Assembly: GCA_013204445.1 (NCBI GenBank)
Contig: JABMNS010000039.1
Span: forward strand, 1 to 52,608
From: Sphingomonadales bacterium
GTDB taxonomy: Bacteria; Pseudomonadota; Alphaproteobacteria; Sphingomonadales; Sphingomonadaceae
Length of the DNA stretch: 52,608 nucleotides
Direction of reading: 5' to 3'
Shown here: piece after piece, positions 18,351-41,258 of the stretch
How the letters are laid out: every line of letters starts with the position of its first letter
How positions within the stretch are numbered: position 1 is the first letter of the stretch
Notes under the pieces: model-generated
The model's input: the letters and a program-made list of their open reading frames with translations, nothing else
Told to the model about the DNA's origin: nothing
Database searches by the model: none
Made by a program: the position numbers and the translations under genes

Positions 18351-19759
18351 GCTGCTTCTCCTAAAATTTCTGCTCTCAATGATGTTGCGGGATTTCTCTC
18401 ACCGTCAACTTTGATCTTAAAGCTCATGGCGGGCCCCGGCGTCGGCGCAGTTTTGGTTTTCAAGACATATTCCGTCGATTCCAGACTTATATTGAGCCGG
18501 TGGAATAGCCTTGCGATACAAATTCCCATCAGCACTTCTGCCAGGCTTTGGCCCAGACAGCTATGCGTTCCCCTGCCAAACGGCGCATAGGCCCCGGGCT
18601 GTAAATGTTCACGCCGGTCGGCGCGGTCAGGATCGAATTTCATGGGGTCGGGGAAATATTCTTCCATGAAATGCGGTACACTGGTTCCAATGAAGATCGT
18701 CTCATCCTTGGGAACCACAAAGCCTTCGAATTCCAGATCATGATTGGTGGTGCGCATTTGCGCCACCGCGATCGGCCAAAGCCGCATTGCTTCTTTCAGG
18801 CAATTTTGAATGTAATTCAATCCCAATACATCACGCTCGGTCACGATATCTTTAGCAAATAAAGCATCGGCCTCCGCTTGAACTTTTTCGAGCACGCCGG
18901 GCGTTTTCAATATGCCATAGACGGCTGCTGCCAAACTATTGGCGACAGTATCAAGCCCGGCAACATAAGGTCCTGTCAAAACCAATTTCAGATCGCGCTT
19001 CTGAATCAGATCAGGATCGTCGAGATGACCCCGCATCACATCACCCAGCAAATTTTTGGGCAGCGTGCCGGCTTCGGCATGGGTGAAAAATTCATCAACC
19101 ATTTGCTGGCCCAACTCATCCACTCGGGCGCTGGCGCGCTTGAACTCCGGCATATGGATCATGAAGCCCGGCCATTGCTTGGTCACGAGCACGTTGAGGA
19201 TATAGAGGATATTCACCCTGATATCCCGGACATATTCCAGCGGCGCGTTGCCGGTCATCACTTCGCCAAGCAGCTGAACGATCATATATTGAAATGCCTC
19301 GACCACCGGCACTTCGCCATCATTCCAGTCTCGCTCGAGCGAGATATCAATGATGTCCGTCAGTTCGTGATAGCGTCCAGCCATTGCGCCACGCGAAAAC
19401 CCGTCGCGCATGATAGCGCGCATTTTCTGGTGTTGCTCGCCATCAATTCCCGTCAGTGTTTTAGATGCGCCATGATGGTCGACAAAGTCTTGCCAGAATT
19501 CCTTGGATCGCAGACCCAGTCTCGCAGCCTTGCTGTTCATGAACTTGCCTGCTTCAGGCCCGGCAATGACTATTCTTTTCTGCCCAAACACATTGACCCG
19601 GTACACCGGGCCATAGTCACGGTAGCATCTGACGAAAAAGGCTGCTGGATCCTTGGCCATTTCCAGCGTGTTGCCGATAATGGGTAGTCCACCCACATTC
19701 GGGATGACCTTTGGGGATGTCGGCTTTGGCTGGACACTAACCTGCGACTGCGTAGTCAT
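18347..19759 (-). CDS. Cytochrome P450 monooxygenase
   Basis: A 470-residue heme monooxygenase. The I-helix oxygen-activation region is GPYVAGLDTVANSL, the ExxR motif is KEAMRLWP, the PERF-like region is FDPDRADRREH, and the heme cysteine loop is FGRGTHSCLGQSLAE. There is no membrane anchor, so it is soluble and needs a ferredoxin. A [2Fe-2S] ferredoxin at 32484-32804 carries a matching promoter motif and is the best candidate partner. It leads a two-gene operon with the Rieske oxygenase. A role in initial hydroxylation, for example of a methyl or side-chain carbon, is likely but unproven. Confidence 0.95.
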   Translation of the reverse strand: MTTQSQVSVQPKPTSPKVIPNVGGLPIIGNTLEMAKDPAAFFVRCYRDYGPVYRVNVFGQKRIVIAGPEAGKFMNSKAARLGLRSKEFWQDFVDHHGASKTLTGIDGEQHQKMRAIMRDGFSRGAMAGRYHELTDIIDISLERDWNDGEVPVVEAFQYMIVQLLGEVMTGNAPLEYVRDIRVNILYILNVLVTKQWPGFMIHMPEFKRASARVDELGQQMVDEFFTHAEAGTLPKNLLGDVMRGHLDDPDLIQKRDLKLVLTGPYVAGLDTVANSLAAAVYGILKTPGVLEKVQAEADALFAKDIVTERDVLGLNYIQNCLKEAMRLWPIAVAQMRTTNHDLEFEGFVVPKDETIFIGTSVPHFMEEYFPDPMKFDPDRADRREHLQPGAYAPFGRGTHSCLGQSLAEVLMGICIARLFHRLNISLESTEYVLKTKTAPTPGPAMSFKIKVDGERNPATSLRAEILGEAA

Positions 19760-19784
19760 AATCGATCCTCTCGCGGAATCACTT

Positions 19785-19801
19785 TTCGAACAACGTTCGG
19801 A
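19785..19801. promoter_or_regulatory. TetR-type operator upstream of P450 operon
   Basis: TTCGAACAACGTTCGGA lies 26 bases upstream of the P450 start. It matches the dyad TCNGAAC-N3-GTTCNGA at all fixed positions but one, and 14 bases (GAACAACGTTCGGA region) match the complement of the site at 32411-32427. It is a probable binding site for the TetR protein at 22212-22913. Confidence 0.6.
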
Positions 19802-19909
19802 TATTCCGCTATGGCTTCGAATATGTCAACCGGGAATCTCTCAAAGCAGCCTGTTTCTAAGTGTTTCAGCCTAGGAAGATCGCTTGACTCCTACAAAACT
19901 TTCTCTATT

Positions 19910-19926
19910 TCTGAATGCCGTTCGGA
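19910..19926. promoter_or_regulatory. TetR-type operator upstream of SDR-ALDH operon
   Basis: TCTGAATGCCGTTCGGA is a dyad with outer arms TCNGAA/TTCNGA, 26 bases before the SDR start at 19952. It is the second such site in this 192-base divergent gap, so P450 and SDR-ALDH transcripts would be co-regulated. Confidence 0.6.
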
Positions 19927-19951
19927 AATAGATATTTGTGGGAAGAGAAAC

Positions 19952-20824
19952 ATGGCGCAGAAAACTGCCTTCATAACGGGCGCAGCGATGGGAATGGGTG
20001 CTCTGAAGGCCAAAACACTGGCTGGGCGCGGCTGGAAGGTATTTGCCGGCGTTCTTCCCGGAGCCGACACATCCGAACTTGGCGAGCACGAGAATATCGT
20101 TGCTGTGGAACAGGATGTTTCGTCGGACGCATCGGTGGCCGCCAGCGCCGAGATAGTCGAGAAAGCACTTGGCGGCGCACCGCTCGATCTTCTGATCAAC
20201 AATGCCGGCATTGCCAACGAAGCGGTCGGGGTTATCGAAGGCGTGTCGATCGATGCGGCCAAAAAACTTTTTGAAATCAACACCTGGGGCACATTGCGCG
20301 TTTGTCAGGCTTTCCTGCCGGCAATCCGTCGCGGAGCGCCCCATTCCCGGATCATAAATTTTGCATCCGGAGCCGTGAAGGCAAATCCCGCCGCATCGGG
20401 TATCTATAATATGTCCAAACACGCGGTAGTTGGATTGACTCGCACCTTGCGCAACGAGTTGGCGCCCTTTGGCATCGAAGTCACCGCTGTCGAACCCGGT
20501 GCAGTCAAAACCCACATGACCGCTAACGCCGGTGAAACAACCAAAGATATTTGGACGAGCGTTTCGCAAGAAATGAATGATGTTTACGGCCCGCATTTGA
20601 AGCATACAACGACCGAAAAAATGGTCGAGATGATCGAAAAAGGAAATGAACCGCAAGTGGTTGTCGACCAGGTGTTAGGGCTCTTGGACAAGAAAAACTG
20701 GAAGCCGTCCTATCTGGTAGGCGATGATGTCAAGGCGCTCGGGCCGATGTACAAGCTGTTGCCCGAACGGACGTTTGAAAAATTGCTTCAAAAAGCCGTA
20801 GAAATTCCGCAGTATAAAGGCTGA
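19952..20824 (+). CDS. SDR-family oxidoreductase
   Basis: A 290-residue short-chain dehydrogenase. The glycine motif is an unusual TGAAMGMG. NNAG is intact in LLINNAGIA, the catalytic serine sits in NFASGAV, and YNMSK gives Tyr and Lys. An extra C-terminal stretch (KKNWKPSYLVGDDVKALGPM, then LLPERTFEKLLQ) resembles SDRs acting on long or hydrophobic substrates. I start at 19952, after GGAAGAG. A longer frame from 19811 would run through the operator. Its TGA is 3 bases before the aldehyde dehydrogenase ATG; together they could turn a P450-made alcohol into an acid. Confidence 0.92.
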   Translation: MAQKTAFITGAAMGMGALKAKTLAGRGWKVFAGVLPGADTSELGEHENIVAVEQDVSSDASVAASAEIVEKALGGAPLDLLINNAGIANEAVGVIEGVSIDAAKKLFEINTWGTLRVCQAFLPAIRRGAPHSRIINFASGAVKANPAASGIYNMSKHAVVGLTRTLRNELAPFGIEVTAVEPGAVKTHMTANAGETTKDIWTSVSQEMNDVYGPHLKHTTTEKMVEMIEKGNEPQVVVDQVLGLLDKKNWKPSYLVGDDVKALGPMYKLLPERTFEKLLQKAVEIPQYKG

Positions 20825-20827
20825 GCT

Positions 20828-22231
20828 ATGTCCGAGATCGCCGATAAATTTGCCAAGCTACAATCATCAAGACAGCGTCTGCGGAACAGCAGTGCAAAAG
20901 AGCGCGCCGACAAGCTGAAAGCGATCTGGGCCGGTGTGGTTGAACGCAAAGACGACATATTTGCGGCTGGCCACAAGGAACGCGGCACCCATGATCTCGA
21001 CATCGCCGCCGAACTGGTGATGATCAAGGGCGAGATTGATTTTGCGATCAAGAATCTCGCCAAATGGATGAAGGCAGAGAAGATCAAAAACTCGCTCAAT
21101 ACGATGGGCAAGCGCTGCGAAATCCGGCGGCAATCGAAAGGCGTGGTGCTCAACCTGTCTGCCTATAACGCCCCCACTGCCGAGTGCCTCGTTCCGGCAA
21201 TACCGGCAATCGCGGCGGGTAACGCGGTGGCGATCAAACCTTCCGAACACGCACCCTATAGCGCGCAAATCGTGCAGGAGATCATCAACAACGCCTTGCC
21301 CTCGGATGAAGCTGAAGTGTTTCAGGGCGGCGTTGATGTTTCGCAGGAACTACTCGGCCTGCCCTTCGACCATATCTATTATACCGGCGGCATGAGCGTC
21401 GGCAAAATCGTCATGAAGACGGCGGCCGACCATTTCGCCTCGATCACGCTGGAAATGGGCGGTAAATCTCCTGTCATTATCGACGAAACCGCGAACCTGG
21501 ATAATGCGGCGAAGAAGCTGGCATGGGGCCGCGTGATGAACGCCGGCCAGGTCTGCATCGCTCCGGAATATGTGATCATCCACGAAAGCCGGAAAGATCA
21601 ATTTCTCTCGTTGATCGAAGAACAGATCAATGCACTCTATAATTTTGACGGAGCTGGCCTCGATAAATCAGCCTATGTCCCGCGGATCATCAACGAACGC
21701 CACACCGCCCGCATCAAAGCCCTGGTCGATGATGCCAAAGAAAAGGGAGCCCGAGTCGTGTGCGGCGGCGGCTCCGACCTAGAGGACCGCTATATCGAGC
21801 CTACCGTGCTCACCAATATGTCCGAAGACATGGACATCATGCACGAAGAAGTCTTCGGACCTGTTCTTTCGGTCCTGACCTATGGCAGTCGCGAAGAGGT
21901 GCTCGACATCATCAGCCGCCGCCCGAGCCCGCTGGCGCTCTATGTCTATTCAACCGATGACGAGGCGATCGAATATTTTCTCAACAACACCAGTTCCGGT
22001 TCTGCGGTGGTCAACAGCAATTGCATCCAGTCGGGCACCAACCCCCGCCTGCCCTTTGGCGGCGTGGGATCGTCCGGCATGGGACGGATTGGCGGGTATG
22101 AAGGCTTTAAATCGATGTCCAACGAACGCTCGATCGTCCATCAGCCGCTCGACCGGTTCCGTGATATACTCATCATGCTGCCGCCCTATTCGGAACGCTA
22201 TAACAACCTGATTATGAAGGCGCTAAAATAG
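20828..22231 (+). CDS. Aldehyde dehydrogenase (class 3 / coniferyl-type)
   Basis: A 467-residue NAD(P)-dependent dehydrogenase making a carboxylic acid. The general-base glutamate is in LEMGGKSPVI, the nucleophile cysteine in NAGQVCIAPEYV, cofactor-binding glycines in YYTGGMSVGK, and EEVFGPVL follows. A C-terminal PPYSERYNNLIMKAL tail is typical of the shorter ALDH3/coniferyl group. It lies 3 bases after the SDR. The acid product would then feed the acyl-CoA ligase at 26590. Its last 20 bases overlap the convergent TetR gene. Confidence 0.94.
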   Translation: MSEIADKFAKLQSSRQRLRNSSAKERADKLKAIWAGVVERKDDIFAAGHKERGTHDLDIAAELVMIKGEIDFAIKNLAKWMKAEKIKNSLNTMGKRCEIRRQSKGVVLNLSAYNAPTAECLVPAIPAIAAGNAVAIKPSEHAPYSAQIVQEIINNALPSDEAEVFQGGVDVSQELLGLPFDHIYYTGGMSVGKIVMKTAADHFASITLEMGGKSPVIIDETANLDNAAKKLAWGRVMNAGQVCIAPEYVIIHESRKDQFLSLIEEQINALYNFDGAGLDKSAYVPRIINERHTARIKALVDDAKEKGARVVCGGGSDLEDRYIEPTVLTNMSEDMDIMHEEVFGPVLSVLTYGSREEVLDIISRRPSPLALYVYSTDDEAIEYFLNNTSSGSAVVNSNCIQSGTNPRLPFGGVGSSGMGRIGGYEGFKSMSNERSIVHQPLDRFRDILIMLPPYSERYNNLIMKALK

Positions 22232-22913
22232 CATCTTCCGGTTCGCCGCGCTCACGCGCAATGGTTTTAAAAGCAGCGCGCAGCAAGTTTTTGATGCGTT
22301 CATTTGGAGGGCTTGTAAGCCCCTCAACGGCTTGGCTGAACAGCGGATATTCGTTTTTATCCAGCCGCGCAAACTGACGCAATGCGACTTCAGTCGCCGT
22401 TTCCTTTTGCGCTTCAAACTCGTTGTTGCGGATTTCTTCCACCGCGCCGGCAAAGGCAGCCGAGCCAACCATATTGAATATACGCATACCCTCTTTAGGG
22501 GCGAAACCGCGTTTGTGCATGACCGACAGAAATTGTTCCGCCAATTTGAACTGCACCTCAAATCCATATTCCCGCACGTGGTTTGCAAGCACAAGTGATG
22601 GGCTGGCGGCAAGAAAGTTCTGGATGCAAAGGGCGAACTCATAAGCATAGCTAGACCAAGGTTGGTCTTTGTCGTGGGGAAGCGCGAGATCAGCCAGAGC
22701 ATGTACCGCCGCTGCCTGCATGAGTTCTTTGCGACCATTCCAATATTGATAGAGTGTAGCGGTGCCGACATTCAGATGATTGGCGAGCGTTTTCATCGTC
22801 AGGCCTTCCAGCCCTAGCTCCAGCGCGCCTTCGATTATTTCAACATGCGTCAGCAGCCGTGGTCGCCCGTAGACCACGTCTTTCTTCGCTTTTTTTGCTA
22901 TGCTATTTGTCAT
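22212..22913 (-). CDS. TetR-family transcriptional repressor
   Basis: A 233-residue regulator with an N-terminal TetR HTH (about residues 24-68: IIEGALELGLEGLTMKTLAN, then LNVGTATLYQYWNGRKELM). A helical ligand-binding domain follows, of the TetR_C type. It is central to a group of operons that share the dyad TCNGAAC-N3-GTTCNGA, including one 11 bases upstream of its own start. It therefore probably represses itself, the P450/Rieske, SDR/ALDH, CoA-operon and ferredoxin transcripts until a pathway intermediate, perhaps a CoA ester, binds. The regulon is inferred from the motif only. Confidence 0.92.
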   Translation of the reverse strand: MTNSIAKKAKKDVVYGRPRLLTHVEIIEGALELGLEGLTMKTLANHLNVGTATLYQYWNGRKELMQAAAVHALADLALPHDKDQPWSSYAYEFALCIQNFLAASPSLVLANHVREYGFEVQFKLAEQFLSVMHKRGFAPKEGMRIFNMVGSAAFAGAVEEIRNNEFEAQKETATEVALRQFARLDKNEYPLFSQAVEGLTSPPNERIKNLLRAAFKTIARERGEPEDAILAPS

Positions 22914-22923
22914 ACCACCATTT

Positions 22924-22940
22924 TCCGAATGTCGTTCCGT
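22924..22940. promoter_or_regulatory. TetR-type operator between tetR and enoyl-CoA hydratase
   Basis: TCCGAATGTCGTTCCGT agrees with TCNGAA...TTCNG; only the last base departs from the dyad. It is placed 11 bases upstream of the TetR start and 84 before the enoyl-CoA hydratase, fitting autoregulation and possible control of the divergent gene. Confidence 0.6.
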
Positions 22941-23023
22941 TAATCGGGCGGGGGCGTCAATATGTCAATTGAAAAGCCCGAAAATCCTTGCAAATCTTGC
23001 CTTTGTTGCGTTTGGATGCCGCT

Positions 23024-23995
23024 ATGCATGATCTTGTCAGCAAAGATACTCTAGATTTACTGATCAACTCCAGGGTGCACCGGGAGAGTTTTGGTCCCGG
23101 TACAGACCGTCCATGTCTTGCGGTCGATCTAGATGGTTCGAATAGCGACCACGCAGCGTGGCTGAAAGACCTGCCCTGCCCGGTTATCGGTATCGGAGAC
23201 GGACCCTTGGCCAAGGCTTGCGACGTCGTTCTTACCGACCAATGCGGCCTCGATCAAATTATGACAAATATCGCGAAGGCTCCGATCGCTGCGATGATAT
23301 TGGTTCAGCATTTGCGGTCTAGTGAAACGCTCGATGTACAAGATACGCTGACCGCAGAAAGTTTCGCCTATGCCACCGCGCAGCGAGGGCCTGAGTTCTT
23401 GGAATGGCTCAAAGGTTATTCGAAAAAAACAGAAGCGACGAAGTTCAATGATGAACAGCTGCTCGTCAATATCGAAAACGAGAAAATGCACCTGACGCTA
23501 AACGATCCGGAAAACCATAATGCCATCGGCGTAACGATGCGCGATGCAATTTGCGAAGCCCTGGATCTGGCACTCGCGGATGGAAGTTTCACTCGCGTCA
23601 CAATCACGGGCGCGGGACGCTGTTTCTCGACCGGCGGAGATGTGGATGAATTTGGCGAGATATCGGATCCCGCGACAGCCCATTGGGTTCGCAGCTTGCG
23701 ATTGCCGGCATGGCGTTTGGCGCGGCTCGAAGATCGGCTGCACGTCCATGTCGATGGCGCCGTCGTCGGGGCGGGAGCAGAAATCGCGGCCTTTGGCAGT
23801 CGTGTAACCGCCACGGAAAATGCATGGTTCCAGTTGCCGGAACTCAAATATGGATTAATTCCCGGCGCGGGTGGGACTGCCAGCCTGCCACGCCGTATCG
23901 GGCGACAGCGGACAGCCTATCTGGCTTTGTCGATGAAACGACTGGATGTTCAGACTGCGCTAGACTGGGGTCTGGTGGACGAGATACTATCGTAA
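23024..23995 (+). CDS. Enoyl-CoA hydratase/isomerase family protein with N-terminal extension
   Basis: A 323-residue crotonase. The C-terminal half is a normal crotonase domain: CFSTGGDVDEF for oxyanion binding, DGAVVGAGAEIAAF, and PELKYGLIPGAGGT with the catalytic glutamate. The first 140 residues are an extra, degenerate crotonase-like region (CPVIGIGDGPLA, later ESFAYATAQRGPEF) seen in one subfamily. It would hydrate or isomerise a CoA-bound alkene. The start at ATG 23024 is a choice; a TTG at 22988 would add 12 residues. Its last 46 bases overlap the convergent amidohydrolase. Regulated perhaps by the operator at 22924. Confidence 0.88.
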   Translation: MHDLVSKDTLDLLINSRVHRESFGPGTDRPCLAVDLDGSNSDHAAWLKDLPCPVIGIGDGPLAKACDVVLTDQCGLDQIMTNIAKAPIAAMILVQHLRSSETLDVQDTLTAESFAYATAQRGPEFLEWLKGYSKKTEATKFNDEQLLVNIENEKMHLTLNDPENHNAIGVTMRDAICEALDLALADGSFTRVTITGAGRCFSTGGDVDEFGEISDPATAHWVRSLRLPAWRLARLEDRLHVHVDGAVVGAGAEIAAFGSRVTATENAWFQLPELKYGLIPGAGGTASLPRRIGRQRTAYLALSMKRLDVQTALDWGLVDEILS

Positions 23996-25308
23996 ACCAT
24001 CTCACCTGATATCCAGGTCGCACGGACCGAAACTTCCGCCAGAACATTGCGGGCATCAGACCAGCTACGATCCAGCAGACACAGGTCTGCCGTGGCCCCT
24101 TTCTCAATGATCCGGGCCTCCCCTCCAGCATCTTCTACTGGTTTTATATATAGCGCCAATGCCTGTTCGGCGGTGACTGCTTCATGGGGCTCCAGCCCCT
24201 CTGGCCGTGTAGCGGCACTGGCCATGGCTTTCCAGGGATTACAATCGCCAAACGGCGCATCGCTTCCCGCTGCCAGTCTTATACCTGCGTCGAGAAAGGA
24301 CTTGAGCGGCCAGAGGTACGGAAGGTCATCCCTGTCTACATCACGAAGATAGGCCGCTCCCCGTTCCGCTACAAAATGCGGTTGAGTGACGACGGTCAAA
24401 TCCAGCCGCTTGATCCATTCTATTGCCGCTGCATCGGCAATCGCGGCATGCTCGATCCTGTCACCATGGCTAGGGCCTGCGTCCTGGATGGCTGCCAGAC
24501 TGAGCATGAGTTCGGCCCGGGTAACGCAATGCACCGCCACCGCCCGGCCATGCGCATGGGCTTTTTTGATAGAGTCGGTCAAGGCAGAGAGAGGCGGCAG
24601 GTCATGATCATGATTGTGAATTTTCAGGGGCCCGATATTTGCCGCATGTCTTCCGTCCACCGCGTGAAGATCTTCGCCGCCCATGATCGAAAGACGCAAT
24701 GGTCTCGCCGCCCGAAGATAATGTTCAAGATCGAGCCGGTCATTCCCCGGTGTCACTTCGGTCACGCCGGTGATACCGAATGACAGCAGCTTCTTGATCA
24801 ACTGCCCCAGATCCGGCCTCTGGCTCCCCAGCGCCTGACGTACCAAGACGTCACCATCAACCAATCGGCCGTCATCCGGAATATTTGCATCAAGCACCGC
24901 GATGGCGCGGCTATTGAAAATCCACATCCGCCCGCTGCGGTGCTGAATCCGGACGGGTCTGTCGGGGCCGTATTTGTCCAGCCAGTCACGGTCGATTTCA
25001 CCGGCTACCGAGGGGTGGTAACCGATGCCGCGCAACCAGTCGCCACCCGGGTTGCGGTGCAACGCAGCGATCAGTTGCTGCTCGTCCTCGACTTCGGTCG
25101 GACCACAATGGACCGACTGCAGAGCGGCAGCGGTAGCGTTCAGATGGATATGATGATCGTGAAGACCCGGCAGCAGCGCGCCGCCCTTCCCTTCCACGAC
25201 CCGTTCGTGATCCAGCGCTGGCAGATGATCTGATAGTGCTTCTATCAGACCGTCTTTGATACGGACGTCGACACGCTCTCCACCAACGTCGACATTGCGG
25301 ACTAGCAT
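23950..25308 (-). CDS. Amidohydrolase family 3 (YtcJ-like) protein
   Basis: A 452-residue metal-dependent hydrolase. PGLHDHHIHL carries the first metal histidines, VAVHCVTRAEL and RIEHAAI hold later ones, and AGSDAPFGDCNPW has the catalytic aspartate. The family acts on amides, cyclic amides or other C-N/C-O bonds; substrate unknown. It is the last gene of the seven-gene acyl-CoA operon, overlapping the CoA transferase stop by 7 bases. Its C-terminal tail after ATWISGEMVY overlaps the convergent hydratase by 46 bases. It has no signal peptide, unlike the related 44089-45777 gene. Confidence 0.9.
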   Translation of the reverse strand: MLVRNVDVGGERVDVRIKDGLIEALSDHLPALDHERVVEGKGGALLPGLHDHHIHLNATAAALQSVHCGPTEVEDEQQLIAALHRNPGGDWLRGIGYHPSVAGEIDRDWLDKYGPDRPVRIQHRSGRMWIFNSRAIAVLDANIPDDGRLVDGDVLVRQALGSQRPDLGQLIKKLLSFGITGVTEVTPGNDRLDLEHYLRAARPLRLSIMGGEDLHAVDGRHAANIGPLKIHNHDHDLPPLSALTDSIKKAHAHGRAVAVHCVTRAELMLSLAAIQDAGPSHGDRIEHAAIADAAAIEWIKRLDLTVVTQPHFVAERGAAYLRDVDRDDLPYLWPLKSFLDAGIRLAAGSDAPFGDCNPWKAMASAATRPEGLEPHEAVTAEQALALYIKPVEDAGGEARIIEKGATADLCLLDRSWSDARNVLAEVSVRATWISGEMVYDSISSTRPQSSAV

Positions 25309-26603
25309 AGCCTGGCCATTATCTGCCGTGTACTCGCCCCTATTTCCTCAATCGGCGCTGATGGTTTGCGCATCGGGTAGAGGTCGGCGTCGTCCGTTTC
25401 GCCCAGCGCTTGCCATTCTGATGCGATAGCCGGCCAGTCGTCTTTTGTGCCGTTCAACTGCATCGCGCGTCCAACAGCATCGCGCATCGAAAGATGGATC
25501 AGGCTTCCACCCCCGGCCTGCCATTTCGTCCGGGCGGCAAGAGCCGCCAATATGCCGGACACGGGATCGGCAATCGCATCTCCGACGAAAAAGGGCGCAC
25601 CCCATGCCTTTTGCATAATCGTGCTCAGTCCGGCAGCAACGCCAATATCCTCGCCAAAGCCAACCCGGCTTTCATCATCCCCATAAGCCCCCAGTCTAAG
25701 CCAGACCTTGCCGGGTTTCTGCGCGAGCAATTTTTCGGCATCTATGCCCAATTGCACCAAGGCACGCGGCCGAGATCCCTCGATGACAATATCGGCAGCT
25801 GCCAGCAGTTTTCGTAAGTCGGAACGACCGTCAGCCGAATAGAAATCAAAGGCGGCACATTGCTTGCCCCCGTTCAGCAAATGATAAATTTCCGCGTTGC
25901 CGCTCCGCGCTCCATCGGGCCGCGAGATACTCTCCACTTTGACCACATGCGCGCCCATGAGATGCAGCAGGTGACTGGCGAGCGGCCCTGCCCACAAGCT
26001 CGATAGATCGACCACCAAGGGTTGGGCTCGGACAGATCGAACGGACGAATATGACGTTTCGGTAAACCACGGTTTGCTCTCGGCAACTTGGTCTAGCGAA
26101 ATAGCCAACCCTATTTCACCACCTCTTTGAACCAGGGTTTCAGCATCTTGAGACAAAGCAATCCTTATGACATCCTCCCAGGTCGTAGCCGGCTCTTCAA
26201 GCCATGCTTCGAGTAACGCCCAGTCATCATCGCGCGCGAGATTGAGCGCAAATCTGCTCTGCTTTGCGTCAATGAGACGACAATGGCCACTTGGCGAAGC
26301 ACGCCCGTAGCGGGAGAGATTCATCAACCGCGCTCGTTCGCCCAGCAGCAGCGATCCGTTTATCGGCAGGTTTTCAGGGGCGCCGGATAGCGATTTGAGC
26401 GCCAATATTGCGCCATCGACAAATGTAGCGAGCGGCAGCGGAACCATCAGCGCGGGACCATCTCTTTCTCCGCTGAGGCCAGATAGTCCAGTCCGCCGCC
26501 AGGCCAATGCCGGATGGTCACTTTGCCCGGAAAGTGAAGCGCGATAGCCCAATTCGGCCAGCAGCTCTTTGCCAATCCGCGCCGCTGGTTTAAACTTGTG
26601 CAA
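25302..26603 (-). CDS. CaiB/BaiF family III CoA transferase, single domain
   Basis: A 433-residue CoA transferase moving CoA between acids. LVVDLSSLWAGPLASHLL and GAHVVKVES form the N-terminal Rossmann-type region, GDAIADPVSGILAALAA contains the catalytic aspartate, and the tail is present. An N-terminal extension of about 150 residues (ALAWRRTGLSG, PLATFVDGAILAL) precedes it, as in one CaiB subgroup. The start is uncertain: no ATG suits. I chose TTG at 26603, which overlaps the ligase stop by 14 bases. An ATG at 26813 lies deep in the ligase and gives non-homologous sequence; GTG 26621 is another option. Confidence 0.85.
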   Translation of the reverse strand: MHKFKPAARIGKELLAELGYRASLSGQSDHPALAWRRTGLSGLSGERDGPALMVPLPLATFVDGAILALKSLSGAPENLPINGSLLLGERARLMNLSRYGRASPSGHCRLIDAKQSRFALNLARDDDWALLEAWLEEPATTWEDVIRIALSQDAETLVQRGGEIGLAISLDQVAESKPWFTETSYSSVRSVRAQPLVVDLSSLWAGPLASHLLHLMGAHVVKVESISRPDGARSGNAEIYHLLNGGKQCAAFDFYSADGRSDLRKLLAAADIVIEGSRPRALVQLGIDAEKLLAQKPGKVWLRLGAYGDDESRVGFGEDIGVAAGLSTIMQKAWGAPFFVGDAIADPVSGILAALAARTKWQAGGGSLIHLSMRDAVGRAMQLNGTKDDWPAIASEWQALGETDDADLYPMRKPSAPIEEIGASTRQIMARLC

Positions 26604-28056
26604 GATGGTCGCGGACGACACGGCGGAGCAGCTTGCCGGTTTCACTATAGGGCAATTCATCCATGAATATGATTTGGGACGGCACCCGGCTGGAACGCAA
26701 TTTGCCACGCACCAGTTCACAAAGCTCGTTTTTATCTGGAGCGGAACCCTTGCAAACAATCGCTGCGCCGACCGTTTCGCCCCATTCCTCACTGGGTATC
26801 GAGACCACGGCAACGTCTTTTACGCAGGGATGTCCCAGCAACACATCTTCCACTTCACCGGGCGAAATATTCTCTCCCCCGCGTACAATCACGTCATCGG
26901 CGCGTCCGTCGAGAAACAAATAGCCTTCACCATCGACAAAGCCGACATCCTTGGTCGGGAACCATCCGTCTGCATCAAGCTGCGAGCCAGCGCCCTTATA
27001 CTCGCCACTGACCTGATCACCGCGCACATGGACGAGGCCCACTTCATCGGCCTTGCAAGCGGCTCCGTCTTCGGTCCGTATTTGCAATTCCACGGTTGGC
27101 AGGGCCTGCCCGACCGAACCAAGCCGCCGCCGAACCAGCGGATCGTTCGACTTTATCGCATCGCGGTGCGACTCCGGCCCCAGCAGGCAAATGGTCGAGC
27201 TGGTTTCGGTCAATCCATAGGCATTGGTGAAATCAACATGGGGCAATAGCCCCACCGCCTTTTCGATCACCGGCAGCGGCATTTTTCCACCGCCATAGGA
27301 AAGCGCGCGCAGCTTTGGCAGCTCTAGTGCTCCGCCATTTTGGCCGACATGCTCGACGATATGTTGCAGCATCGTCGGCACAACAAAGGCGTGGGTGACA
27401 GCTTCTTTTTGCGCCAGATCAATCCAGCCTGGCGGACTGAAATTGGGAAGTTGCACCATCCGTCGGCCCGCATAGGTCGAACTCAATACCGCAGAGATAC
27501 CGGCAATATGATAGGGCGGAACGGTGATTAGGCTGGCTTCCTCCTCGCCCGCGCTCATAAATTCCACGCTGCCCAGAATATAAGCCATCAGGTTGCTGTG
27601 GCGCAATATCGCCGACTTCGGTTCACCGGTGGTGCCGCTGGTGAACAATTCTATTGCAACTTCGCCGTCAACATCGGGCGCTTCGCCTTCCAATGCATCG
27701 CCGATCATCGCATCCGCGCGACTGATCCGGTCAATCTCCGGATATTCTTTCTCACTGTCCGTGATCAAAAGCGCAGGCGTGATCCGTTTCATCAGGGCTT
27801 CAATCTGTTCTTCTGCCAGCCGGTAACTGACCGGTACAAAAGATGTGCCAGCCAGCGCAGCACCGAAAATTCCGGCAGCCATCGCGGTGTGGTTTTCCGC
27901 CAGATAGGCAAGCCTTTGGCCGTGATTCAATTTCGCCGCCACCTGACGCGTCGCCTGTGCCAGATCTGCATAAGTGAACCGCTGATCCCCAGCGGTAATC
28001 GCTTCGCGGTCACCCATGGCTTCGGCTGCCATTTGCAGGATCAGGTGAATATTCAT
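26590..28056 (-). CDS. Acyl-CoA synthetase (AMP-forming ligase) 1
   Basis: A 488-residue adenylate-forming ligase that activates a carboxylic acid with ATP and CoA. The P-loop motif is LFTSGTTGEPKSAI, the adenine region NAYGLTETS, the hinge DGRADDVIVRGGENISPGE, and the catalytic lysine region PYSETGKLLRR near the C-terminus. It is rather short for the family but complete. ATG at 28056 overlaps the stop of the small upstream gene by one base (TGATG). It sits among CoA-transferases and a retro-aldolase pair, so it likely makes the CoA ester of a side-chain or ring-opened acid. Confidence 0.93.
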   Translation of the reverse strand: MNIHLILQMAAEAMGDREAITAGDQRFTYADLAQATRQVAAKLNHGQRLAYLAENHTAMAAGIFGAALAGTSFVPVSYRLAEEQIEALMKRITPALLITDSEKEYPEIDRISRADAMIGDALEGEAPDVDGEVAIELFTSGTTGEPKSAILRHSNLMAYILGSVEFMSAGEEEASLITVPPYHIAGISAVLSSTYAGRRMVQLPNFSPPGWIDLAQKEAVTHAFVVPTMLQHIVEHVGQNGGALELPKLRALSYGGGKMPLPVIEKAVGLLPHVDFTNAYGLTETSSTICLLGPESHRDAIKSNDPLVRRRLGSVGQALPTVELQIRTEDGAACKADEVGLVHVRGDQVSGEYKGAGSQLDADGWFPTKDVGFVDGEGYLFLDGRADDVIVRGGENISPGEVEDVLLGHPCVKDVAVVSIPSEEWGETVGAAIVCKGSAPDKNELCELVRGKLRSSRVPSQIIFMDELPYSETGKLLRRVVRDHLAQV

Positions 28057-28361
28057 CAGTCGGAAGAGGGCAATTGCTTGGCCTGTTTGATATCCAGCGA
28101 CACACCGTTCACCTGAACCGTACCCTCGCCAGCCCTGGTGCACAGAAATTCCATGGCCTCCCTTTCATCAACATAGCGTTTTCCGACCAATGTTCCCCCG
28201 GCAAGATCGCTATCCATTTCCCCCTTCTCGCCATCCTCAGTTACCATCGGCGCACCGCCGCAGGTGATTTCCAGCCTTTCGATGGGCGCGCGCAGCGCCA
28301 TGATCTGGGTCTGGCATACTGCACTGCTCAGCTTGGTTCCTGCCTTGATTATATCACCCAT
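28056..28361 (-). CDS. Small conserved protein with two cysteines, unknown function
   Basis: A 101-residue soluble protein. The pattern SAVCQTQIMALRAP ... LEITCGGAPMV looks conserved with small proteins next to acyl-CoA ligases in actinobacteria and sphingomonads, from memory. The two cysteines are 18 residues apart, but no enzyme motif is recognisable. It is tightly packed between the Ltp2-like gene (15-base gap) and the ligase (TGATG), so it may be an accessory subunit of one of those proteins. Function not known. Confidence 0.8.
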   Translation of the reverse strand: MGDIIKAGTKLSSAVCQTQIMALRAPIERLEITCGGAPMVTEDGEKGEMDSDLAGGTLVGKRYVDEREAMEFLCTRAGEGTVQVNGVSLDIKQAKQLPSSD

Positions 28362-28376
28362 TTTACGCTCCCGAAA

Positions 28377-29534
28377 TCACTTGCCTATTATCGCACCAGC
28401 GACACCCGACGCCAAGAATACTGTTTCAACATCTTTCACCTGATTGGCCGCAGTTCCGCGTACCTGCCTTACCCCTTCGGTGATATTGTTCATGCCATGA
28501 ATATAGCCTTCGCCCATCAATCCGCCATTGGGGCTGAGCGGTGATTTGCCGTCGAGTTCCATATGACCGTCCTTGATAAAGTCTTTTGCCTCGCCGATAC
28601 CACAATAGCCAAAACCTTCGAGCTGGCGCAGGATTTGCGGCGTGAAATTGTCGTAGATCATCGCGACATCGGTATCTTTCGGCGCGATACCGCTCGATGC
28701 GACAAGCTTTTCCGCCACCCGTTCGCTGATGTCGGAATGGATCAAATCGCCTTCGTAAAAATCCGAGATAATTTCGTGGTTGAACAGGAAACTATATTCC
28801 GCGCCCAATATGCGGACCGGCTTCTGTTTCAGATCGGCCGCCTTGTCCATGCGCGTGATGACCAACGCCACGCCGCCGTCCGATTCCTGACAACAATCGA
28901 GCAGGTGCAGCCAGGGCTCGATTATCCATCGGCTCGCCTGATGGTCTTCAAGCGTAATCGGCTTTTCAAAAAACCACGCATCTGGATTGGTCGCCGCATG
29001 TTTGCGCATCAACACGGCGATCCGCCCTAAATCTTCCGATGTCACACCATATTTATCGAGATAGGGTCCGCACGACAGGGCTTCCCATGCCGCTGGTGTC
29101 TGGGCACCGAACGGAAAGCACCATTCCAGAAAGGTCGAGCTATGCGCGTCCGGACTGATCGTCATCGCCGGTTGGCCGAAACGATATTGCGACCGTTCGT
29201 TCATCGCGCGCCAGATGACGAACACGTCGCACATGCCGGACTCTACGGCATTTTTCGCGTGGACAATGGTCGCAACCGAAGATGCCCCGCCCTGCGGCAG
29301 CCGCGTGGTATAATTGATCTCCTTGCAACCCAAGGAACGCATTACGTCGACTTCATCGCTATTGTCGAGGCTGAACGTGGTCATGCCGTCGATATCCGAC
29401 GGATCGATACCGGCATCCTGACAGGCAAGCAAAATCGCTTCCGCCGCCAGTTGTTGCTCCGATCGTCCGCTGTTTTTCGAAAATTCGGTCTGGCCGATAC
29501 CGACAATGGCGGCCTGTCTTGAACTATCCACCAT
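28377..29534 (-). CDS. Thiolase-fold Ltp2-like aldolase (SCPx-related), not a normal thiolase
   Basis: A 385-residue thiolase-superfamily protein. The nucleophile cysteine of true thiolases is absent: the matching region reads RLPQGGASSVATIVHA. The C-terminal GHP motif is replaced by GEGYIHGMNNITEG, and IYDNFTPQILRQLEGFGYCG lies before it. These are the features of Ltp2-type enzymes, which cleave beta-hydroxyacyl-CoA by a retro-aldol reaction with tyrosines as acid/base. In steroid degradation Ltp2 works with a DUF35 partner, and here a DUF35 gene is directly upstream and coupled by TGATG. A side-chain retro-aldol step is thus likely. The exact substrate is unknown. Confidence 0.85.
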   Translation of the reverse strand: MVDSSRQAAIVGIGQTEFSKNSGRSEQQLAAEAILLACQDAGIDPSDIDGMTTFSLDNSDEVDVMRSLGCKEINYTTRLPQGGASSVATIVHAKNAVESGMCDVFVIWRAMNERSQYRFGQPAMTISPDAHSSTFLEWCFPFGAQTPAAWEALSCGPYLDKYGVTSEDLGRIAVLMRKHAATNPDAWFFEKPITLEDHQASRWIIEPWLHLLDCCQESDGGVALVITRMDKAADLKQKPVRILGAEYSFLFNHEIISDFYEGDLIHSDISERVAEKLVASSGIAPKDTDVAMIYDNFTPQILRQLEGFGYCGIGEAKDFIKDGHMELDGKSPLSPNGGLMGEGYIHGMNNITEGVRQVRGTAANQVKDVETVFLASGVAGAIIGK

Positions 29535-29938
29535 CAGCTTGCCTCCGCCGCGCGGAATATGGGGACCGCCTTGCCGCCCGATGTCTGCGCGAAATCAACC
29601 ATCACAGCCATTCCGATGACGATGTCTTCAACCGCAACGCCCTCGAGATTGCTGACCAGCCGGATGCCTTCTTCGAGTTCAATAAGCGCCGCGATTGGCG
29701 ATTCAGAAAAACCGAATGCAGCGGGGGTCACCTGCCGCACCCAGCTCAGCAACTTGCCCTTGCCGGAAAGCTTCTGGGTCGTTTTTTCGTTCGAATGACA
29801 GGTCGGACAAATCGGCCGCGGCGGATGCCACAACACATCACATTTTTCACATTTCTGCGCGACAAACTCGCCGCGTTCGCAGGCCTCCCAAAAGAAAGCG
29901 GTGTCGATGCGCTGGATCGGGTCTGGACGCATGTTCAT
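29534..29938 (-). CDS. DUF35 OB-fold protein, Ltp2 partner
   Basis: A 134-residue protein with an N-terminal rubredoxin-like zinc ribbon (CEKCDVLWHPPRPICPTC) and a C-terminal OB fold. DUF35 proteins bind acyl-CoA and form complexes with thiolase-fold partners; ChsH2 does so with Ltp2 in cholesterol breakdown, where DUF35 is fused to a hydratase domain. Here the hydratase part is missing, so this is a stand-alone DUF35. It overlaps the fused CoA transferase stop (ATGA) and the Ltp2-like start (TGATG). I start at ATG 29938; a frame to 29989 would enter the transferase. Confidence 0.88.
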   Translation of the reverse strand: MNMRPDPIQRIDTAFFWEACERGEFVAQKCEKCDVLWHPPRPICPTCHSNEKTTQKLSGKGKLLSWVRQVTPAAFGFSESPIAALIELEEGIRLVSNLEGVAVEDIVIGMAVMVDFAQTSGGKAVPIFRAAEAS

Positions 29939-32346
29939 ATCCCCCACGGGCTTTTCATCGCCTCCTGTCCCTCGCGGGGCGGGTCGCATAGGATCGCAAA
30001 GTCCTTGGCCATCGCGTTGATATCGTCCTCGCTATACCCGATTTCAGCCAGCAATGAGGCGCTGTTGTCTCCGACGATCAACGGCGGTGTCTGCTTCACC
30101 GTCGGCGTGTCCGACAAGGAATAAGTCGCGCCAATCTGCTCCAGCTTGCCGACATAGGGGTGTTGATATTCCAGCGTCCAGCCCCGTTCCTTCATCGATG
30201 CATCATCGAACAGACCGAGCGAGGCCCTGGCATCGGATATCGCTGTCGGAACGCCGGCCTCGGTCAGTCTCGCGTGCCATTCTGCAGCGGTGGCATTCAA
30301 GAAATCGCTGCCCTTGGCAATATTATCAAAGGCCGCCTTTTGCGTGTCATTGACCGCTGCAACCTGAATCCAGACGTCATCGGAACAGCGATAGAGCCGG
30401 TAATGATCGCCATAGCCGGTCTGATCCTTGTCGAGACGGGGACGATTCACCGCACTACCATCCGGCTTTACCACCGCATAGCTTGTATTCAGCAAACCGG
30501 CGTTGACAATCGATGTATCGACAAATTGTCCCTTGCCGGTTTTTGCACGCTCCATCAGCGCGTTGCAAATGGCCGAAGCGGAGAGGAAACCGTTGCCGGT
30601 GTCACCAAGCGACGTGAGCGACCAAAAGGGAAATCCTTCACCGGTATGCAGCGCTCCATCCTCGTGCTGGATGCCGGAAAGACAGGCACCGGTCTGATCA
30701 TTGCCGGGCAAGTTCATCCGCGGCCCTTTTTCAAACCCACGGCTGTGGCAATAGATGAGCTGCGGGAACTCTTCCTTCAAACTGTCATAATCAAGCCCCA
30801 GTCGTTCGACCGCCGGGTAGCGCATATTGTGCTGGATGACATCGCAGGTCGCGATAAGCTTTTTCAGCGCCTCCATGCCCTTGGGATGCTTGAGCATCAG
30901 CGCAATCGAGCGTTTACCGCGATTGGCCATATAGGCGATATGCGTGCGGTGCCAATAGCCGTCCCAGAGCGTGTTTATCTTGATCACCTCCGCACCCATA
31001 TCGGCAAGCAATTGGCAACCGAACGGACCGGCAATGGCAAGGCCGAGATCTAGCACGCGAATGCCTTTTAGAGGACCTTCATTGGTTGCATTGGCGGGCA
31101 GTGAATGTTCCAGTGGGTCGGAAAGAGAGGCGGCACGGGCCTTTTCAGCGTCAGTATCCGATCCGGTCGGCCGGGTCGGCCCCTGTATAGCGCCCGGGTT
31201 TTTCTCCAGCGAGTAAGTCAGACCAACCTGATTGATCGGCCCCAGCTCCGGGTCGTCAACCGTGGTCACACAGCCATCATCAATCAGCAGTGGATCAGTT
31301 AGCGATTCCTCCAGCGAGCGCGCCTCCTGCATCGTCACGCTGCCAATGGCGGCGGCATTCACCCATTCATCCGCGCTAAATTTCCTGATCGATTCAGCCA
31401 GGATCGGCTGATAATGAGCCATCACCAGTATTTCTTCGGGTCCAATACCAAAGCGGTCGGGATCATTCTGCACCGTCAGATCAGGAGTGGCGTTCAGCTT
31501 ATCGCTTTTGGATGCCTCCAGTATGAAGCGCGGGTTTGGCACCCAGTTGTGAATCCACTTGCCGTCCTTACATTGGAAATGCCCTTTGGGGCTGGCGCTA
31601 CCCATGATCCAGGTGTTGTACCCTTCCGCATCCGGGTCATCGGCCCGCTGCCAAACACCGCTTGCACAGGCCAAAGCGCCCTGATGAAGCGATGTCGAGA
31701 CCTTCTGTCCGCGTCCGGTTCTCTCCCGCGCATATAATGCTGCAGATATGCCGGTAATCGCGGAGAAAAACGCGCCAAGACTTGGCCACGGCGATGCCAC
31801 GAACAGCGGCCCGTCGCGATTGGCGCCCTGCACCCAGTCGGGATCGAGATCGAGGGCACCGGCAAATGGATCTTCCTTGCCCGCCATATGGTAGAGCGAG
31901 CCTTCCGGCCAGCCACGCTGTTCATATTGCAGTCCGGTTTTCGCAGCGACCAGCGCATCATAGCCGGGCAGATCGCGATTTTCGCCTCCCTCTCCATAAC
32001 CCGTGATTGAGCAATAAACGAGTTTCGGGTTTATCTTTGCCAATGCTTCATAATCGACACCAAGGCGATCAGTGACACCGGGAGAGAAGCTTTCGATGAC
32101 GATATCGGCATCCGCCGCAAGTTTCAGGAACAGGGATTTGTCCGCATCATCCTTGAGATTGAAAACGGCATTTTTCTTGCCACGGTGCCAGACCTTATAT
32201 CCGAGCAGATTTCCAAAAGGATCGCCTTCTGGTCGTTCGATGCGTGTGACGTCGGCGCCTTGGTCGGCCAACAACATGCCAGTCATCGGTCCGGCAATTC
32301 CCCAACTAAGGTCGAGAACATTCAATCCATCCAATACGCCAGCCAT
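29935..32346 (-). CDS. Tandem-fused CaiB/BaiF CoA transferase
   Basis: An 803-residue protein with two CaiB-type modules: one from residue 1 (VLDLSWGIAGPMTGMLLADQ), one from about 425 (IRVLDLGLAIAGPFGCQLLA). Each has GRGQ/GKGQ near its catalytic segment. Module 2 keeps the aspartate (LGDTGNG, 21 residues before TGKGQ). In module 1 the same spot holds serine (PSLGAFF, 21 residues before TGRGQ), so module 1 may be inactive or structural. Family III transferases act as interlaced dimers, so the fusion could form a one-chain heterodimer. It leads the seven-gene operon and is divergent from the ferredoxin. Confidence 0.92.
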   Translation of the reverse strand: MAGVLDGLNVLDLSWGIAGPMTGMLLADQGADVTRIERPEGDPFGNLLGYKVWHRGKKNAVFNLKDDADKSLFLKLAADADIVIESFSPGVTDRLGVDYEALAKINPKLVYCSITGYGEGGENRDLPGYDALVAAKTGLQYEQRGWPEGSLYHMAGKEDPFAGALDLDPDWVQGANRDGPLFVASPWPSLGAFFSAITGISAALYARERTGRGQKVSTSLHQGALACASGVWQRADDPDAEGYNTWIMGSASPKGHFQCKDGKWIHNWVPNPRFILEASKSDKLNATPDLTVQNDPDRFGIGPEEILVMAHYQPILAESIRKFSADEWVNAAAIGSVTMQEARSLEESLTDPLLIDDGCVTTVDDPELGPINQVGLTYSLEKNPGAIQGPTRPTGSDTDAEKARAASLSDPLEHSLPANATNEGPLKGIRVLDLGLAIAGPFGCQLLADMGAEVIKINTLWDGYWHRTHIAYMANRGKRSIALMLKHPKGMEALKKLIATCDVIQHNMRYPAVERLGLDYDSLKEEFPQLIYCHSRGFEKGPRMNLPGNDQTGACLSGIQHEDGALHTGEGFPFWSLTSLGDTGNGFLSASAICNALMERAKTGKGQFVDTSIVNAGLLNTSYAVVKPDGSAVNRPRLDKDQTGYGDHYRLYRCSDDVWIQVAAVNDTQKAAFDNIAKGSDFLNATAAEWHARLTEAGVPTAISDARASLGLFDDASMKERGWTLEYQHPYVGKLEQIGATYSLSDTPTVKQTPPLIVGDNSASLLAEIGYSEDDINAMAKDFAILCDPPREGQEAMKSPWGI

Positions 32347-32410
32347 TGTTCATCCTTTTGTTGCCGTTGAATGTCCATCTTGCCATATTGAATTTGTGCA
32401 GCTATGACTT

Positions 32411-32427
32411 TCCGAACGTTGTTCTGA
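32411..32427. promoter_or_regulatory. TetR-type operator in divergent gap (CoA operon / ferredoxin)
   Basis: TCCGAACGTTGTTCTGA is a perfect dyad TCNGAAC-GTT-GTTCNGA and the best of the four copies. It is 64 bases upstream of the CoA transferase start and 56 before the ferredoxin, so one site could control both divergent transcripts. Confidence 0.65.
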
Positions 32428-32483
32428 AATACGTTATTCAGCTGATGAGTCAACCAGTATCGACGCAAAGTCAGGGAAATATC

Positions 32484-32804
32484 ATGCCGAAAATAACCGT
32501 TTTTGATCTGGACGGGAAACAACATATTCTTTTGGGAAATTCGGGTGATGCCCTGATGGAACCATTGCGTGACGAAGGGTTGGTCGAGGCCACCTGCGGC
32601 GGAGCGGCCTCCTGCGGCACTTGTCATATTTACTTGGGTGCTGATTGGTTAGAGAAATGTGGAGAGCGCACCGAAGATGAAGGCTATATGCTCGAAGGAC
32701 TGGAAGAACATGTCGAAGTAAAAAGCGTGTCACGGCTCGCTTGCCAAATTACGATCACCGACGACATGGACGGTATGACCATGGATATTGCACCGCAAAT
32801 ATGA
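32484..32804 (+). CDS. [2Fe-2S] ferredoxin (adrenodoxin/putidaredoxin type)
   Basis: A 106-residue electron carrier. Cysteine pattern C-x5-C-x2-C is in ATCGGAASCGTCHIYL, with the fourth cysteine in SRLACQITI. It is a soluble P450/Rieske-type ferredoxin. It is the only ferredoxin in the window and carries the same promoter dyad as the P450/Rieske operon, so it probably feeds electrons to the P450 and maybe to the Rieske enzymes. A reductase is not present here. ATG at 32484 follows AGGGAAAT; an earlier frame start at 32346 overlaps the CoA transferase promoter. ATGA overlap with the next hydrolase. Confidence 0.95.
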   Translation: MPKITVFDLDGKQHILLGNSGDALMEPLRDEGLVEATCGGAASCGTCHIYLGADWLEKCGERTEDEGYMLEGLEEHVEVKSVSRLACQITITDDMDGMTMDIAPQI

Positions 32805-41167: not shown

Positions 41168-41210
41168 CATTATTCCGCATTTGGTTATAATTTCTTCTTT
41201 CACTCCAATG

Positions 41211-41218: not shown

Positions 41219-41258
41219 TTATACAAGAAAAATCCAGTTAAAATTGCTGGAGGGTATG

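What the first reader, a model, noticed from the sequence alone, without database searches (positions are those of the whole stretch)
19785..32427. One TetR repressor may control P450, SDR-ALDH, CoA operon and ferredoxin through a 17-bp dyad
Four intergenic sites share TCNGAAC-N3-GTTCNGA or close variants: 19785-19801, 19910-19926, 22924-22940 and 32411-32427. They sit 11-64 bases upstream of a start codon in every case and one is at the TetR gene itself. They tie five or more transcripts into a single regulon across 15 kb, and link the only ferredoxin to the only P450.
Basis: partly seen in the sequence, partly recalled or inferred. Interest (0 to 1): 0.75.

Follow-up and report, generated by a model that had tools for sequence, protein, structure and literature searches.

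The report
TetR-controlled steroid-type degradation regulon
A gene-control protein of the TetR family very probably switches four promoters of a steroid-like degradation gene cluster through one shared DNA sign, and the same protein, sign and genes recur together in bacteria of other orders.

Summary
In detail: all four dyads lie at the stated places, 10-64 bases before start codons. The evidence is comparative. The dyad is really a 21-bp operator, TTTCNGAACNNNGTTCNGAAA. Its four sites are kept at the same places in relatives of the same genus (86% identity in sites, 43% in flanks). A degenerate form occurs 45 times in 13 TetR-bearing genomes (reversed-pattern control: 2) and once in the 29 genus genomes without the TetR. 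In eight Hellea genomes, where the SDR gene lies apart from the P450, it too has the operator in front. In 42 of 59 listed promoter orientations a TTGAC -35 box begins 24-26 nt before the operator, which so covers -10 and start: a usual repressor position. The genes (CYP51/CYP46A1-like P450, KshA-type Rieske, Ltp2-like aldolase, CoA ligase; in relatives also KstD and sulfatases) point to steroid or sterol degradation. Binding, repression and inducer are inferred. "Only P450" holds for the window, not the genome. A new member of a known kind, with an operator unlike EdcR's; a conserved regulon worth testing.

The parts
22212..22913 (-). TetR-family regulator, 233 aa
   Evidence: Pfam TetR_N 27.1 bits (cut-off 24) and TetR_C_1 22.6 (cut-off 21); 15 orthologues 37-79% identical aligned in A3; predicted fold (mean pLDDT 81.7) matches TetR structures
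22922..22942 (-). operator 3, between TetR and the crotonase gene; weakest of the four
   Evidence: PWM 24.0; kept in G021 and G022 (15 and 16 of 21 bases); -35 TTGAC at 22964-22968, 26 nt before it
19783..19803 (-). operator 1, promoter of P450-Rieske
   Evidence: PWM 30.1; 20 and 19 of 21 bases kept in G022 and G021; -35 TTGAC at 19825-19829
19908..19928 (+). operator 2, promoter of SDR-ALDH
   Evidence: PWM 27.5; kept in G021, G022 and before the SDR gene of 8 Hellea genomes; -35 TTGAC at 19884-19888
32409..32429 (-). operator 4, between the CoA operon and ferredoxin
   Evidence: PWM 31.2; 20 of 21 bases kept in G022; also in G021, G454 and 6 annotated Hellea loci; -35 TTGAC at 32449-32453 towards the CoA operon
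18347..19759 (-). cytochrome P450, 470 aa; best-scoring solved structures are CYP51 and CYP46A1
17328..18350 (-). Rieske oxygenase with KshA_C domain, overlaps the P450 gene by 4 bases
19952..20824 (+). short-chain dehydrogenase
   Evidence: Pfam adh_short
20828..22231 (+). aldehyde dehydrogenase
   Evidence: Pfam Aldedh
22988..23995 (+). crotonase-type protein (ECH_1 in its C-terminal half), divergent from TetR; first codon uncertain
29935..32346 (-). tandem fusion of two class III CoA-transferase (CaiB) domains, 803 aa; first gene of the CoA operon
   Evidence: Pfam CoA_transf_3, 474.7 bits, 3 stretches
29534..29989 (-). DUF35 / ChsH2-like protein (start uncertain, overlaps the CaiB fusion)
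   Evidence: Pfam zf-ChsH2 and OB_ChsH2_C
28377..29534 (-). SCP2-thiolase-like aldolase, nearest PDB entry 6ok1 'Lipid-transfer protein'
   Evidence: phmmer E 1.1e-119; NCBIfam PRK07855 493 bits over cut-off 469
28056..28361 (-). 101-aa ORF without Pfam match; ORFs of similar length lie at the same place in G021 and G446
26590..28143 (-). AMP-forming acyl-CoA ligase (true start probably further in)
   Evidence: Pfam AMP-binding
25302..26813 (-). class III CoA-transferase (CaiB); start uncertain, overlaps the ligase
23950..25308 (-). amidohydrolase (Amidohydro_3), last gene of the CoA operon
32484..32804 (+). [2Fe-2S] ferredoxin, 106 aa
   Evidence: Pfam Fer2
32741..33712 (+). alpha/beta hydrolase downstream of ferredoxin; the listed start overlaps the ferredoxin gene and is probably too early

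Best explanation
The TetR protein at 22212-22913 is a local repressor of a steroid-type catabolic regulon. As a dimer it binds a 21-bp dyad (TTTCNGAACNNNGTTCNGAAA) lying over the -10 box and start of four promoter regions, shutting off P450-Rieske, SDR-ALDH, its own gene, probably the divergent crotonase gene, the seven-gene CoA operon and ferredoxin-hydrolase. When the substrate or an early (oxidised or CoA-linked) intermediate accumulates it binds the TetR core and the protein leaves the DNA. Ferredoxin is co-induced to feed electrons to the P450 and/or Rieske oxygenase; SDR and ALDH take the alcohol to an acid; the ligase makes a CoA ester; crotonase, DUF35 protein and the Ltp2-like aldolase shorten the side chain. 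Shown by sequence: sites, conservation, position at promoters, co-occurrence with the TetR. Inferred: binding, repression, inducer, steroid or sterol as substrate, order of reactions. I put the TetR-dyad pairing at about 0.9 and the steroid substrate at about 0.65.
For: All four sites kept at the same places in G022, three of four in the G021 contig aligned, the fourth on another G021 contig; 127 of 147 site bases kept against 119 of 280 flank bases in 7 comparisons. Window sites far above all other window sequence with a matrix from other genomes. 13 of 13 TetR-bearing genomes searched have the degenerate pattern, 45 places against 2 for the reversed pattern; of 32 genus genomes the 3 with the TetR have 10 places, the 29 without have 1 (5 of those 29 are under 90% complete). 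A P450 search found 17 loci; all 17 carry a top-scoring dyad (14 at 29.2-32.1, of which L059 is G021 and so in the training set; the three IMCC14465-type loci 15.9-20.9), and 16 of 17 hold the TetR (the 17th, L058, is a 5.9-kb contig; its genome has the TetR on another contig). In 8 Hellea genomes the SDR gene lies apart from the P450 yet has the dyad in front. TTGAC starts 24-26 nt before the operator in 42 of 59 promoter orientations that I listed; about 0.17 expected. HTH residues GRPR and K.L...L.VGT.T.YQY are invariant in the 16 TetR proteins aligned. Steroid: Ltp2-like aldolase (46), KshA_C domain (11, 47), CYP51/CYP46A1-like P450 (44), KstD downstream of an operator-bearing gene in two Hellea genomes, G448 and G449 (51, 65, 66, 69, 88).
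Against: No binding or expression data. The TetR-promoter site is the weakest and most changed. G022 has an unlinked place scoring 23.1 inside a 920-aa ORF, close to the weakest window site (24.0); G021 has one of 17.8 inside an 856-aa ORF and the own genome one of 19.1 (L054), above the score of the L072 site (15.9). 17 of 59 listed orientations lack the TTGAC box at the common distance; these include the ferredoxin and crotonase sides. Several of the 45 pattern places are not tied to catabolic genes or were not annotated (for example G443 C5 and C24, G447 C203, G450 C3, and G453 C29 beside a Na+/H+ antiporter gene). The KstD family's curated cut-off (789 bits) was reached in 0 of 39 genomes, and 3 of 24 TetR-lacking genus genomes have a match above 497 bits, two of them the best of all. 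No KstD or sulfatase was found on the window contig, and no acyl-CoA dehydrogenase among the genes of the CoA operon.
Confidence: 0.7

Rival explanations
1. The regulon is real but the substrate is not a steroid: a branched isoprenoid, terpenoid or alkyl sulfate is hydroxylated by the P450 and taken apart by the CoA enzymes.
For: P450, SDR, ALDH, ligase, crotonase and CaiB genes serve many pathways; NCBIfam's two best P450 names are terpene oxygenases, far under cut-off; an AtuA (acyclic terpene utilisation) protein lies at 14531-16363; alkyl-sulfatase-like enzymes in relatives.
Against: Ltp2-type aldolase with DUF35 partner, KshA_C Rieske, KstD next to operator-bearing genes in two Hellea genomes, CYP51/CYP46A1 as best solved P450 matches. 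Steroid-degradation HMM hits in metagenomes of the sponge Cymbastela were reported to be dominated by either Hellea or Cellvibrionales (PMC5790920, passage read).
Confidence: 0.3
2. The TetR is an activator, or represses only some of the promoters (for instance not ferredoxin or crotonase).
For: The TTGAC box at the common distance is missing on the ferredoxin and crotonase sides.
Against: Where the box is seen the operator covers -10/start, the usual place for a repressor; on the ferredoxin side a TTGCC element 29 bases before the site is kept in the window, G021, G022 and G454 (30 bases in H. balneolensis; read from the lines).
Confidence: 0.15
3. Another regulator (for example the Crp/FtrB-type protein at 16444-17133) binds the dyad and the TetR is a bystander.
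For: A Crp-like gene lies near by.
Against: The dyad follows the TetR across genomes and lies just before the TetR gene in the loci that hold it. The Crp-like protein was among the queries and had no match in the G021 and G022 stretches (E 1e-8) or in the 17 P450 loci (E 1e-10).
Confidence: 0.05
4. Chance resemblance of four weak palindromes.
For: Loose scan of the window is not enriched.
Confidence: 0.01

Closest known systems
EdcR of Caenibius tardaugens (TetR repressor of the estradiol edc cluster)
   Same: Sphingomonad TetR repressor of a steroid catabolic cluster, several promoters under one palindrome that overlaps the -10 box (PMC8700777, passages and abstract read)
   Different: EdcR palindrome TnnCnnTACnAnTnGTAnnGnnA has no match in the window and EdcR has a TetR_C_11 core, ours TetR_C_1; the two proteins were not aligned
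KstR / KstR2 of Actinobacteria
   Same: TetR repressors of sterol side-chain and ring degradation genes, induced by pathway intermediates (PMC8399759, passages read)
   Different: Other phylum; [quoted passage not shown] no entry named KstR is among the 35 solved structures matched; KstR operator core recalled (no call) as AACNNGTT, unlike this N3 dyad
Tet repressors (TetR classes B, D and others)
   Same: Same fold and C-terminal domain family
   Different: 18-24% identity in the 50 structural matches listed; no efflux-pump gene among the annotated neighbours; ligand unknown
Bile-salt degradation of Sphingobium sp. Chol11 and other Sphingomonadaceae
   Same: Sphingomonad steroid degradation with CoA activation of the side chain, whose side-chain removal is described as unknown (PMC8399759, passages read)
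   Different: No gene-by-gene comparison was made here; the review's table lists steroid aldolases as absent in Chol11, whereas this cluster has an Ltp2-like one

Membership tests
TetR family of regulators | N-terminal TetR helix-turn-helix domain | tested here: met
   PF00440 27.1 bits, cut-off 24; predicted fold matches TetR structures
TetR family of regulators | Binds a palindromic operator as a dimer | not testable with these tools
   The palindrome is there and conserved; binding not testable
EdcR group | Operator TnnCnnTACnAnTnGTAnnGnnA | tested here: not met
   no match in the window (exact consensus only)
EdcR group | TetR_C_11 C-terminal domain | tested here: not met
   TetR_C_1 found, TetR_C_11 not
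KstR/KstR2 | Sequence relation to KstR structures | tested here: inconclusive
   no molecule named KstR in 35 matches at E 0.01; no KstR sequence was compared directly
Steroid catabolic cluster | Ltp2-type aldolase with DUF35 partner | tested here: met
   (that 6ok1 is a steroid aldolase is recalled)
Steroid catabolic cluster | KshA-type Rieske oxygenase | tested here: inconclusive
   KshA_C domain 83.6 bits over cut-off but only partial alignment to KshA structures
Steroid catabolic cluster | 3-ketosteroid delta-1-dehydrogenase in the genome | tested here: inconclusive
   15 of 15 TetR-bearing genomes have a match of 497-570 bits, none over the curated cut-off of 789; 3 of 24 TetR-lacking genus genomes also exceed 497
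Steroid catabolic cluster | Meta-cleavage genes of the 9,10-seco pathway (HsaC/TesB) | not tested
   -

The most novel reading that the evidence does not exclude
A single TetR-operator pair, conserved across Sphingomonadales, Maricaulales and IMCC14465-type Alphaproteobacteria (marine, by recall), defines a so far unnamed regulon for catabolism of sterols or sterol sulfates, begun by a P450 on the side chain. The regulator's Tet-repressor-like pocket would sense a four-ring steroid ligand as Tet repressors sense four-ring tetracycline. In relatives it gathers sulfatases, an alkyl-sulfatase-like hydrolase, KstD, a second DUF35-aldolase pair, a propionyl-CoA-carboxylase-like pair and a family of about 565-aa proteins with no known domain.
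Probability: 0.35. Interest if true: 0.7.

Novelty: new member of a known kind. Interest (0 to 1): 0.52.

Why it matters
Few regulators of steroid degradation outside Actinobacteria are described in the papers I saw, and a 2016 survey found no evidence that Proteobacteria degrade cholesterol by the 9,10-seco route (PMC4810484, passage read). A ready operator sequence lets anyone list the pathway's genes in uncultured genomes without knowing the enzymes, and points to a test in a named strain (Hellea balneolensis DSM 19091). It may also give a new steroid-responsive switch.

Tried and rejected
Chance: rejected (see observation check). 'Only P450 and ferredoxin': rejected genome-wide. EdcR identity: rejected by operator and domain. 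The TetR-like hits on Sphingobium plasmids (two regions read) are 29-36% identical and lie beside genes such as methylmalonate-semialdehyde and 3-hydroxyisobutyrate dehydrogenases, so were set aside. Other pattern places of the own genome: the five stretches fetched (C117, C321, C4, C199, C204) have best scores of 7.7-19.1; the remaining places were not scored. Sulfatase as a general part of the regulon: not for the window or G022, where none was found in the stretches searched. A first scan of genome contigs with the TetR alone found nothing. More distant TetR relatives in other genera of the family (22 of 397 genomes at E 1e-10, own genome included, best 152.6 bits outside the own genome) were not examined for the dyad. 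Papers: the listings of searches showed no description of this regulon; the library holds only openly licensed PMC papers, so this is a weak negative. Read: passages of PMC8700777, PMC5790920, PMC8399759 and PMC4810484, and abstract and outline of PMC6356472 and PMC8700777.
Full report
THE SITES. The window is one whole contig (C333) of a 2.53-Mb draft genome, 82.9% complete. In the whole genome, 8 places have at most 1 mismatch, 3 of them here. For the longer form TTTCNGAACNNNGTTCNGAAA the only places with 0 or 1 mismatch are 32409-32429 and 19908-19928; the P450 site has 2 and the TetR site 3 mismatches, among 23 places in all at up to 3 (reversed pattern 10).

RELATIVES IN THE GENUS. The TetR protein has orthologues in 2 of 31 other genus genomes, G021 and G022 (79-82% identical). 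Both carry the same cluster. Aligning the promoters shows the dyads as islands in diverged sequence: 127 of 147 site bases kept, 119 of 280 flank bases (7 comparisons, ungapped flanks of 20 on each side). G021 keeps its CaiB|ferredoxin site on another contig (C138), which was not part of that count.

A MATRIX FROM OTHER GENOMES. A weight matrix made only from 8 sites of G021 and G022 puts the four window sites at 24.0, 27.5, 30.1 and 31.2; the fifth best place in the window scores 9.8, and none of 3 million simulated positions reaches 24.0. The sites are orthologous, so this measures conservation, not independent origin. Elsewhere the matrix is not spotless: an unlinked place in G022 inside a 920-aa ORF scores 23.1, one in G021 inside an 856-aa ORF 17.8, one in the own genome 19.1. 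Only fetched stretches could be scored.

OTHER ORDERS. A scan with the P450 alignment gave 17 loci: two sphingomonads (one of them, L059, is G021 again), twelve labelled Hellea, Hyphomonadaceae or Caulobacterales, and three of the IMCC14465/Rhodobiaceae type. NCBI places Hellea balneolensis in Maricaulales and IMCC14465 in the PS1 clade of Alphaproteobacteria. All 17 hold a top-scoring dyad: 14 at 29.2-32.1 and three at 15.9-20.9 (L070-L072). 16 of 17 hold a TetR orthologue (36-79%); the 17th, L058, is a short contig whose genome holds the TetR elsewhere. In the Hellea loci TetR, P450 and Rieske lie in one direction, so one operator could serve all three. The SDR gene (with ALDH where the contig reaches) lies apart from the P450 in 8 Hellea genomes, each with the dyad in front (L121, L122, L123, L124, L126, L130, L133, L135). 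The CaiB|ferredoxin dyad is kept in 6 Hellea loci that I annotated (L074, L121, L123, L127, L130, L135) and in G454 (L136); G447 and G452 have a place at the same spacing from the TetR site that I did not annotate. In G443 no exact match was listed there, and that stretch was not fetched.

SPECIFICITY. The pattern TWTYNGAAYNNNRTTCNRAWA has 45 places in 13 TetR-bearing genomes and 2 for the pattern read backwards. In 32 genus genomes, the 3 with the TetR have 10 places; the 29 without have 1, in G004 (reversed pattern: 1, in G028). The pattern was chosen after seeing the sites and misses some weaker ones (for example the window's TetR site). Several of the 45 places were not tied to catabolic genes or not annotated.

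POSITION. In 59 site-and-direction pairs that I listed from the window and relatives (a chosen list, not every place), TTGAC starts 24, 25 or 26 nt before the operator in 42 (16, 6, 20); about 0.17 expected if bases were uniform and independent. Relatedness makes these less than independent. So the operator covers -10 and start. The 17 without it include the ferredoxin and crotonase sides; on the ferredoxin side a TTGCC element 29-30 bases before the site is kept.

THE PROTEIN. TetR_N and TetR_C_1 pass their cut-offs narrowly. In the 16 TetR proteins aligned (the G022 and G454 ones were left out), the helix-turn-helix with VGT.T.YQY is the best kept part. The model (pLDDT 81.7) matches Tet repressors best, at TM 0.46-0.63 by query length in the 50 rows listed.

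THE GENES. P450: best solved matches CYP51 and CYP46A1. Rieske: KshA_C domain. Thiolase-like protein: 6ok1, E 1.1e-119; I recall that entry as a steroid aldolase of the Ltp2 type. DUF35/ChsH2-like partner. CoA ligase, two CaiB proteins, amidohydrolase, crotonase, ALDH, SDR, ferredoxin, hydrolase. In relatives the dyad also stands before a sulfatase (L045:556 in G021, score 20.0; L127:276 in G449, with an alkyl-sulfatase-like gene next), a DUF35-thiolase pair (L128), a propionyl-CoA-carboxylase-like pair (L132) and members of a 565-aa family without known domains (L045, L129, L131), followed by KstD in G448 and G449. Sulfatases were found in the fetched stretches of G021 and of five Hellea genomes (G444, G445, G446, G448, G449), an alkyl-sulfatase-like gene alone in G454, and none in the fetched stretches of G443, G447, G450 and G453, in the window, or in 70 kb of G022; for the Hellea genomes without a hit the right stretch may not have been fetched. 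KstD-like matches above 497 bits: 15 of 15 TetR-bearing genomes, 3 of 24 TetR-lacking genus genomes tested (24 of the 29); none passes the curated cut-off, and 497 bits was read off afterwards.

READING. The pairing of one TetR with one dyad over these promoters is about as firm as sequence can make it (about 0.9). That the substrate is a steroid or sterol is likely (about 0.65); that it is often sulfated is a guess from the sulfatases; sterol sulfates occur in marine diatoms (PMC6356472, abstract). The biology is a new regulator-operator pair of a known kind, different from EdcR.

Noticed in passing
L045:4695-6446, L121:4296-5984, L123:3180-4829, L129:1282-2973, L131:3223-4938: A family of about 565-aa proteins (62-88% identical to each other). 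The four scanned with Pfam (L045, L121, L129, L131) and the three scanned with NCBIfam (L045, L129, L131) had no match; in L045, L129 and L131 the gene follows a regulon operator, in L121 and L123 it follows ALDH.
   Followed up: partly
29935-32346: Two class III CoA-transferase domains fused in one 803-aa protein; tblastn covers nearly the whole length in the loci long enough to hold it.
   Followed up: no
28056-28361: 101-aa ORF between the aldolase and the ligase without Pfam match; similar-sized ORFs at the same place in G021 and G446.
   Followed up: no
40397-51928: A second block with another KshA_C Rieske oxygenase, amidohydrolases, ligase and SDRs, without a high-scoring dyad; G022 has a similar Rieske-amidohydrolase stretch beside its cluster by ORF layout.
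   Followed up: no
L028:7756-7776: A further operator-like site in G022 (PWM 22.2) before an SDR gene that is not at that place in the window.
   Followed up: partly
474-2604: Serine recombinase and DUF2924 protein at the contig end, perhaps the edge of a mobile element.
   Followed up: no
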